The notes under the pieces: model-generated
The model's input: the letters and a program-made list of their open reading frames with translations, nothing else
What the model was told of the DNA's origin: nothing
The model's database searches: none
From: Owenia fusiformis
Lineage: Eukaryota > Annelida > Polychaeta > Sabellida > Oweniidae
Direction of reading: 5' to 3'
Length of the DNA stretch: 64,000 nt
Assembly (NCBI GenBank): GCA_903813345.2
Contig: CAIIXF020000010.1
Span: 7,307,169 to 7,371,168, forward strand
Shown: positions 18,701 to 21,700 of the stretch, piece by piece
How the letters are laid out: each line of letters starts with the position of its first letter
Position numbering within the stretch: the first letter of the stretch is position 1
Program-made: the position numbers and the translations under genes

Positions 18701-21700
18701 GGCCCCTTTAAACAAGAGAATGTTATTTTCTCAGTCTGAATTCTTACCATTCTAAATCTACATGGGATGTCTGCTCTAAATACACCAGACTCAATGGCTT
18801 CCACATGGCCGCCTACATAGGTCTCTGAATCTAGTACATGGCCATCGTCCGTCAGTTTGTTGAAGACCTAAAATATAATTGTTGATTTATGCGATGCAAA
18901 ATCTACATATTTTACAACACTATATTGTATTCTGATGAAATTAAGGTTAAAAGTTGACTTTTTGGATGACCCTCATTTTTGAATATGCCCTTGAAGTCCT
19001 GAACACTGAAACACAGCTGAAACTTGAGGATATCTATTCATGCTTGAAAATAATGAAATATTTGAAAATGCCTGAATTTCATGAACATTTCAGGAGGGGT
19101 GTATATCAATTTGTGCCTAAAAATCATGTATATTTGAATATACCTGAATATCATGAACATTTGAGAACATACACAAAGATCAAAGAATACCTGAACACTT
19201 CTGGAATTCATGAATGTTAATATGTTAATCAATACTAATTGATGCTCAAACATTACCTGTTCTTGTTTGTTGGGAAATATGATATTTGCGTGGAATGCCT
19301 GTACCATAAGTAGTGCCTCACAGAGGGTACCAGATCCCTTTCTCAGAACCTCATCAGGCTCCATAGGAATGATGGTACACAGAGCAAAGATGAATGGATG
19401 TACATACTTCATGTAGAGGTAGTATGTAGCTACTGCATCAGACACTGAATAGTTAGCCAGGACCTGAAGAAGATTATTGTTTCAATGACCATGTGATTTT
19501 GAATGTAAAGGTAGTATGTAGCAACTGCATCTGACACTGAATAGTTAGCAAGGACCTGAAGTAGATTATTGTTTCAATGAACATGTGATTTGGAAAGTAA
19601 AGGTAGTATGTAGCTACTGCATCAGACACTGAATAGTTAGCCAGGACCTGAAGAAGATTTCAATGACCATGTGATTTTGAATGTAAAGGTAGTATGTAGC
19701 AACTGCATCAGACACTGAATAGTTAGCAAGGACCTGAAGGAGATTATTGTTTCAATGAACATGTGATTTTGAATGTAAAGGTAGTATGTAGCAACTGCAT
19801 CTGACACTGAATAGTTGGCAAGACCTGAAGAAGATTATTGTTTCAATGACCGTGTGATTTTGAATGTAAAGGTAGTATGTAGCAACTGCATCAGACACTG
19901 AATAGTTAGCAAGGACCTGAAGGAGATTATTGTTTCAATGAACATGTGATTTTGAATGTAAAGGTAGTATGTAGCAACTGCATCTGACACTGAATAGTTG
20001 GCAAGACCTGAAGAAGATTATTGTTTCAATGAACATGTGATTTTGAATGTAAAGGTAGTATGTAGCTACTGCATCTGACACTGAATAGTTAGCAAGGACC
20101 TGAAGAAGATTATTGTTTCAATGAACATGTGATTTTGAATGTAAAGGTAGTATGTAGCTACTGCATCAGACACTGAATAGTTGGCAAGACCTGAAGAAGA
20201 TTATTGTTTCAATGAACATGTGATTTTGAATGTAAAGGTAGTATGTAGCAACTGCATCTGACACTGAATAGTTGGGAAGACCTGAAGTAGATTATTGTTT
20301 CAATGAACATGGATTTTGGAAACTCGGAGATCAACCTTTGGAAGGAAATGTCAAATACAGCAGTCGATTATATTTTCATTAGTAGACCACAAGAGAATCC
20401 AAACTGGGGAAATACATTGTGCTTAATCTCATCCTTAGAAAGCTACATGATTTCAACCTATGGACATTTAAAGGGAGTCCCACTTATAGATCTTTAAGAT
20501 CCACATGTGGGACTCCCTTTATAGAAGCTTTGAAATGAATTTACACTTCTTAATGCTGATATTGATAGTTTTAACTTAATTTTTTCTCTCGGGCCTTGTT
20601 GCCCCTTTAAACACAACATGACTTGAAGTATATTCATTATATTGGCTGTATTCATGATGCCATACTTTAAAGGCTGCAATGTTTCTTAAAATAAAATGAA
20701 TACTCAGGAATCGTGAATTGTGAATGACATCATGACGATAACTGAAGCTTTTTCTACGAGTCAAGTAAAACTGTAAATGTGTTATTATGCCTTTGACCCC
20801 ATCATTAATAAATTGAAGTCCTACCTGTGGCTCCTCATTTGCCATCCTACACATATCCTCTGGATTCAGTTCCACAGGGTCATAGCGTAACTTTGCCTTG
20901 GCAACTGCCTTAAGGTTCTGACTCCCCACTGGGAGGTAGCTATCTCTTTTTACCCACCTAGTTGTAAACATTGAGGAATATGACTGACAATTGATGGCAA
21001 CACTGTGCTACACTACAGTAAAATTTCAAATGTTTGGAACTACTTTGAATTTAAAAAATAATCAAATGACTATATTGCAACAGTATATGAAAAAAATGGA
21101 AACATATGTACAAGTCCTAACTTTTGTATATTTAAGATAGTTATGTATAATGTGGAGCAAAGCTGTGGCCTTTTGCAATTTGGGAGTTTCAGCCATGTTA
21201 ATTTTTTCGAAAATAACATGGCAGAGAAGCATCAAAATATAAGAGGCCACAGATAGGATAGCTAAACTACAAAACAAACTAAAACTATACAAAAGTTAGG
21301 GTAAGTATAAATGTTTCTATTTTTCCATATACTGTTTCAATATGGTCCTTTGATTGCTTATTTTTTAGATTCAAAGTAGTTCCAAACATTTAAAATGTAA
21401 ATGTGTACTCAATGATGTGTGAATATTTCAAAAAAGATTCTGATCTTGTTGATTTTTTGTTGTGAGCAATATGTGCTGATAATACCAAGAACAATTTGAA
21501 AATGAATTTTTCCTTTTTTTCTATGCAAAATTATCTAAAGATTGGAATTTTATTTGATCAATTATTGGCAAGTTTTAACATTGTACCCAGTGGGATTTAG
21601 GCTGACATTTTTTATGATAAAGGGTCTATTCAAACCACATGCCAAGATTTAAATGTTTCCTCTCATAAGCCAGACATTACTGGCTAGTGGCTGTACATAC

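What the first reader, a model, noticed from the sequence alone, without database searches (positions are those of the whole stretch)
19257..20310. Nine decoy copies of the POLE ExoIII exon start stacked upstream of the real exon
Each ~91-bp unit reproduces the 3' splice site and first ~50 coding bases of exon 12, including the proofreading motif [11 protein letters not shown]. In transcript order, all nine precede the true acceptor. Some copies keep the frame, others carry a 1-bp deletion. In an intact copy that I translated, reading on into the next unit meets a stop, so using a decoy should truncate Pol epsilon or trigger decay. A large bank of near-identical acceptors in a proofreading polymerase gene could tune POLE output, be a neutral minisatellite, or vary between individuals.
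Basis: seen in the sequence. Interest (0 to 1): 0.78.

Follow-up and report, generated by a model that had tools for sequence, protein, structure and literature searches.

The report
Tenfold repeated POLE exon splice acceptor
In an animal-like DNA polymerase epsilon gene, the start of one proofreading exon, splice site included, stands nine extra times just upstream of the real one; it is most likely a tandem repeat that caught an exon edge, and it would make a natural test of how cells choose among ten near-identical splice sites.

Summary
Window 19411-20318 (gene on the minus strand) is a tandem array of ten 86-92 bp units, each with about 38 bp of intron end, a CAG acceptor and about 53 coding bases of the POLE ExoIII exon. 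The last unit is the true exon (19463-19257); nine are decoys. On a splice model from this gene, the nine decoys and the true site are the ten best of 67 AG sites scored in the intron (decoys 8.3-9.9, true 9.7, next 3.7). Five decoys keep the frame, four carry a 1-bp deletion. Read-through from any of the nine meets a stop after 10-57 codons, so decay is predicted. Of 23 POLE exon segments only this one has extra copies in the window. The window is rich in tandem repeats, intron and exon parts of decoys diverge about equally, and variants are reshuffled between units. Best reading: a minisatellite born by tandem duplication across an intron-exon boundary and spread by unequal exchange, tolerated because the real acceptor lies nearest the downstream donor (inferred). 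Regulation by decoys is not shown. Two loose ends: decoy differences in the coding part are mostly synonymous, and two decoys could form in-frame 66-nt mini-exons. No RNA, species or population data were available.

The parts
19257..19463 (-). True ExoIII exon of POLE (207 nt, 69 codons); its first 53 bases are the tenth copy of the repeat
   Evidence: phmmer to human Pol epsilon; splice sites; open frame
19411..20318 (-). Tandem array, ten units of 86-92 bp
   Evidence: Tandem Repeats Finder; acceptors in register; blastn of one unit gives ten hits, all here
20229..20318 (-). Decoy 1, acceptor before 20281, 1-bp deletion; upstream edge of the array
20138..20228 (-). Decoy 2, acceptor before 20190, 1-bp deletion
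20046..20137 (-). Decoy 3, acceptor before 20099, frame intact
19955..20045 (-). Decoy 4, acceptor before 20007, 1-bp deletion
19863..19954 (-). Decoy 5, acceptor before 19916, frame intact; possible 66-nt mini-exon 19916-19851
19772..19862 (-). Decoy 6, acceptor before 19824, 1-bp deletion
19680..19771 (-). Decoy 7, acceptor before 19733, frame intact; possible 66-nt mini-exon 19733-19668
19594..19679 (-). Decoy 8, acceptor before 19647, frame intact, 6-bp deletion in the intron part
19502..19593 (-). Decoy 9, acceptor before 19555, frame intact
20825..20957 (-). Preceding POLE exon (133 nt), ends in phase 0, donor at 20824

Best explanation
A minisatellite that arose by tandem duplication across an intron-exon boundary of POLE: each unit joins about 53 bp of exon start back to about 38 bp of intron end. 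It grew by unequal exchange or conversion between units. Shown: the units, their acceptors, their frames, their reshuffled variants. Inferred: normal POLE mRNA is still made because the true acceptor pairs across the exon with the nearest donor (207-nt exon, against 299-1025 nt for the decoys). Also inferred: some transcripts use a decoy, carry a premature stop and are lost to nonsense-mediated decay. On this reading the array is a tolerated splicing burden, not a regulator.
For: Ten units in register. The only copied exon among 23 POLE segments. 25 merged tandem arrays in the window; random placement puts at least one across one of 32 mapped junctions in 82% of trials, mean 1.6, observed 1. 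Variants TCT/TCA and GTA/GTT occur in all four combinations across units, as exchange between units would give. Units 5 and 7 are identical and 4 and 6 differ at 2 columns; mean difference is 5.3 at lag 2 against 7.4 at lag 1. Substitution difference among decoys 2-9 is 0.046 in the exon part and 0.040 in the intron part, so no sign of constraint on the exon part overall. Precedents: boundary-crossing tandem duplication in potato RdRp, minisatellites at human exon-intron boundaries.
Against: The alternation of deleted and intact units is no stronger than chance (63 of 126 orders reach it), so growth by two-unit steps is weakly supported. 5 of 6 substitution sites in the coding part are synonymous third positions (P 0.018 and 0.0057, post hoc), which a purely neutral array would not predict unless variants came from the coding exon. 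A 908-bp array across a junction has an 18% chance under random placement, and selection should lower it. In a two-copy BRCA1 case the duplicated stretch stayed in the RNA, so tolerance is not assured.
Confidence: 0.72

Rival explanations
1. A regulatory decoy bank: use of any of nine acceptors diverts transcripts to decay, and copy number or a splicing factor sets the level of Pol epsilon (poison-exon-like control).
For: Decoys score as high as the true site and 9 of 9 give a premature stop 173-944 nt before the next junction. In the BRCA1 duplication the duplicated stretch, intron part included, was found in RNA with a stop.
Against: Nothing shows regulation or conservation. Minisatellites are common in this window and near two other POLE exons. 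Unit variation shows no constraint overall.
Confidence: 0.12
2. Assembly artefact: the true locus has fewer copies, perhaps one.
For: Short near-identical repeats are error-prone; no reads could be examined.
Against: Units differ by substitutions, a 1-bp and a 6-bp deletion in mixed combinations, and the array is under 1 kb.
Confidence: 0.06
3. In-frame mini-exons: decoys 5 and 7 are spliced as 66-nt cassettes that add 22 residues with a second ExoIII motif.
For: Both are open, 66 nt, phase 0, with GGTCATT donors and 387 and 204 nt left before the true acceptor.
Against: Donors are weak, 3.3 and 4.0 against 2.5-11.0 for 16 real donors, one of which is lower. The tie of donor-like sites to intact units is not significant (3 of 5 against 0 of 4, P=0.17). 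Unit 9 has the same site but only 26 nt follow.
Confidence: 0.03
4. Recursive splicing or new small introns: each unit starts with GT and ends with AG, so the array could be removed step by step.
For: Every unit start reads CAG|GTC; AGGT duplications are known to make introns.
Against: The donor half scores -1.2 to 1.6, below all 16 real donors.
Confidence: 0.03

Closest known systems
Tandem duplication across the intron 1-exon 2 boundary of a potato RdRp gene (PMC4974935; abstract and Results section read)
   Same: A duplicated stretch with intron end, 3' splice site and exon start
   Different: Two copies, and a new intron shown by RNA reads; here ten copies, no RNA
Minisatellites at exon-intron boundaries of human segmentally duplicated genes (PMC2812944; passages read)
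   Same: Tandem repeats at exon-intron boundaries, able to change splicing
   Different: There units average 30 bp repeated 4 times and the genes are recent paralogs; here a 91-92 bp unit carries a whole acceptor, ten times, in a POLE gene with one copy of each exon in the window
BRCA1 intron 9-exon 10 partial tandem duplication (PMC11839443; passages read)
   Same: Intron end plus exon start duplicated; the duplicated stretch in the RNA gives a premature stop
   Different: One extra copy of 2012 bp, in a patient
Poison exons and splicing coupled to decay (recalled)
   Same: Splice choice would give premature stops
   Different: No regulation or conservation shown here

Membership tests
Minisatellite | Head-to-tail units of roughly 10-100 bp | tested here: met
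   period 92, ten copies
Minisatellite | Exchange of variants between units | tested here: met
   four combinations of two variants; recurrent mutation not excluded
Minisatellite | Copy number varies between individuals | not testable with these tools
   one assembly only
Intron gain by tandem duplication | Duplicated stretch supplies donor and acceptor of usable strength | tested here: inconclusive
   acceptors strong; best array donor 4.0, above 1 of 16 real donors
Intron gain by tandem duplication | New intron removed from mRNA | not testable with these tools
   no RNA
Poison exon / decay-coupled splicing | Alternative splicing introduces a premature stop | tested here: met
   9 of 9 decoys, by computation
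Poison exon / decay-coupled splicing | Regulated use and evolutionary conservation | not testable with these tools
   no RNA and no relatives in the collections
Recursive splice site | Acceptor followed at once by a usable donor | tested here: not met
   donor half -1.2 to 1.6, real donors 2.5-11.0

The most novel reading that the evidence does not exclude
Decoys 5 and 7 are spliced as in-frame 66-nt mini-exons through their GGTCATT donors, singly or together. They would insert 22 residues, [21 protein letters not shown](T/M), just before the real ExoIII motif and make a Pol epsilon isoform with a doubled proofreading motif, possibly a mutator whose dose follows array length. The mostly synonymous differences among decoys would then be a trace of translation.
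Probability: 0.03. Interest if true: 0.85.

Novelty: new member of a known kind. Interest (0 to 1): 0.38.

Why it matters
Ten nearly identical acceptors compete for one upstream donor in an essential gene: a ready-made version of the classical duplicated-splice-site experiment, with which one could measure how far exon definition overrides the preference for the upstream site. If copy number varies, it also gives an allelic series for POLE expression. As a genome feature it is most likely ordinary.

Tried and rejected
Recursive splicing or unit-by-unit intron removal: judged unlikely, because the donor half at unit starts is weak.

Copies elsewhere: 22 of 23 POLE exon segments hit only themselves in the window at E up to 1e-3, and one whole unit hits only the array. 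Nothing outside the window could be searched; no genome is held.

Selection on decoys: exon and intron parts differ about equally (the exon figure includes one column whose C/T difference depends on where the 1-bp deletion is placed). The synonymous skew is only suggestive. It counts six sites, leaving that column out: 5 of 6, P=0.018 by codon position and 0.0057 by synonymy. Without the one fixed difference between the true exon and all decoys: 4 of 5, 0.045 and 0.018. Without also the change beside the deletion: 3 of 4, 0.11 and 0.057. The test is post hoc and treats sites as independent.

Alternation of deleted and intact units: no stronger than chance, 63 of 126 orders. Donor-like GGTCATT after intact units: 3 of 5 against 0 of 4, P=0.17.

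RNA families at gathering score and tRNAs (bacterial settings): none found. Naming the species: not attempted beyond noting that the sequence collections on hand are prokaryotic, viral or plasmid.

Full report
What is there. The window has 32-39% G+C in 4-kb steps and carries, on its minus strand, intron-split exons of the DNA polymerase epsilon catalytic subunit. Matches to human chains run from about residue 267 to about 1299. The ExoIII exon is 19463-19257; 67 of its 69 codons agree with the human protein. It follows an exon at 20957-20825 that ends in phase 0. The species is not known; that it is an animal is inferred from the closeness of the match to human.

The array. Tandem Repeats Finder reports 19411-20318, period 92, ten copies, and a row with period 183. 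Ten acceptors lie in register, nine before the true one, with spacings of 86-92 bp. A unit shares 38 bp of intron end and 53 bp of exon start with the true junction. Decoys 2-9 are 80-100% identical over the aligned span, decoy 8 lowest because of its 6-bp deletion. Of 23 POLE exon segments only this one has further copies in the window.

Splice strength. Of 22 neighbouring exon pairs, splice sites were placed for 17; 5 gave no solution, and one implausible solution was dropped, leaving 16 introns. Placement used general splice-site frequencies recalled from memory, so the model leans towards consensus. With the true acceptor left out of the model, decoys score 8.3-9.9 and the true site 9.7. 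These are the ten best of 67 AG sites scored (those at least 40 nt from the donor); the next scores 3.7. The local signal does not single out the true acceptor. Position does: its exon is 207 nt, against 299-1025 nt for decoys read through.

Consequences. Five decoys keep the frame at their start, four have the 1-bp deletion. Read through, 9 of 9 meet a stop after 10-57 codons, 173-944 nt before the next junction. Decay of such messages is inferred. In human data, competing acceptors of comparable strength lean strongly upstream when both flanking introns are short, and significantly less when both are over 250 nt (PMC9225289, abstract and passages; the same passages cite Reed and Maniatis for the upstream preference). 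Here the flanking introns are 1361 and 389 nt, so the choice of the true site is not assured. In a BRCA1 duplication of this kind the duplicated stretch, intron part included, was found in RNA (PMC11839443, passages), which speaks against easy tolerance.

History. Of the 39 rows, merged by hand and without the period-4 row, 25 arrays remain. Random placement of arrays of these lengths puts at least one across one of 32 mapped junctions in 82% of trials (mean 1.6; observed 1); for the 908-bp array alone the chance is 18%. Selection is ignored there. Variants are reshuffled: TCT/TCA and GTA/GTT occur in all four combinations. Units two apart differ less on average (5.3 columns) than neighbours (7.4), but alternation of deleted and intact units is no stronger than chance. 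Exon and intron parts of decoys 2-9 differ about equally (0.046 and 0.040). This fits birth by tandem duplication across the boundary and growth by exchange between units.

Two loose ends. First, five of six substitution sites in the coding part are synonymous third positions, although four units are out of frame. The numbers are small and the test post hoc. The simplest account is that variants entered the array from the coding exon or its alleles, where synonymous changes survive. Second, units 5, 7 and 9 are followed by GGTCATT, which would close an open, in-frame 66-nt mini-exon; 387, 204 and 26 nt then remain before the true acceptor, so only units 5 and 7 are plausible. These donors score 3.3-4.0 against 2.5-11.0 for 16 real donors.

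Known relatives. A tandem duplication across an intron-exon boundary made a new intron in a potato gene (PMC4974935). Minisatellites at exon-intron boundaries change splicing in human duplicated genes (PMC2812944, passages). A C. elegans study links some intronic minisatellites with multiple splicing decisions (PMC4039745, passages). I saw no report of such an array in POLE; this rests on nine searches of one open-access library, of which one search listed 15 of 70 papers.

Verdict. The likely explanation is a neutral or mildly costly minisatellite that caught a splice acceptor: a new member of a known kind, interesting mainly as a ready-made competition of ten near-identical acceptors.

Noticed in passing
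2985-3071: A 21-bp repeat, 4.1 copies, 100% matches, ends about 22 nt before the POLE exon that starts at 2962, so it may touch that intron's branch-point region.
   Followed up: partly
6934-7351: A 17-bp repeat, 24.6 copies, lies about 170 nt upstream of the POLE exon starting at 6763.
   Followed up: no
8790-10228 and 12956-14173, + strand: Frames with Pfam MFS_1 matches (8790-9434 and 12956-14170 tested) lie on the opposite strand inside the 10,165-nt POLE intron 16928-6764; folate-transporter-like by recall.
   Followed up: partly
26344-26872, - strand: Match to Mos1 mariner transposase, in two overlapping frames, so probably a broken copy; the 26347-26691 frame had no Pfam match at 0.001.
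   Followed up: partly
33152-37214, + strand: A 792-codon frame with reverse transcriptase RVT_1, followed by a frame at 36663-37211 without a Pfam match; a retroelement, DIRS/Ngaro-like by recall only.
   Followed up: partly
31264-31539 and 27238-27594, + strand: A WSC-domain frame, and a PAN_1 match just below its curated cut-off (20.2 against 21.4).
   Followed up: no
54979-59075, + strand: Several exon-like frames resembling importin-11 by recall; the two given to Pfam (54979-55269, 55755-56342) had no match.
   Followed up: partly
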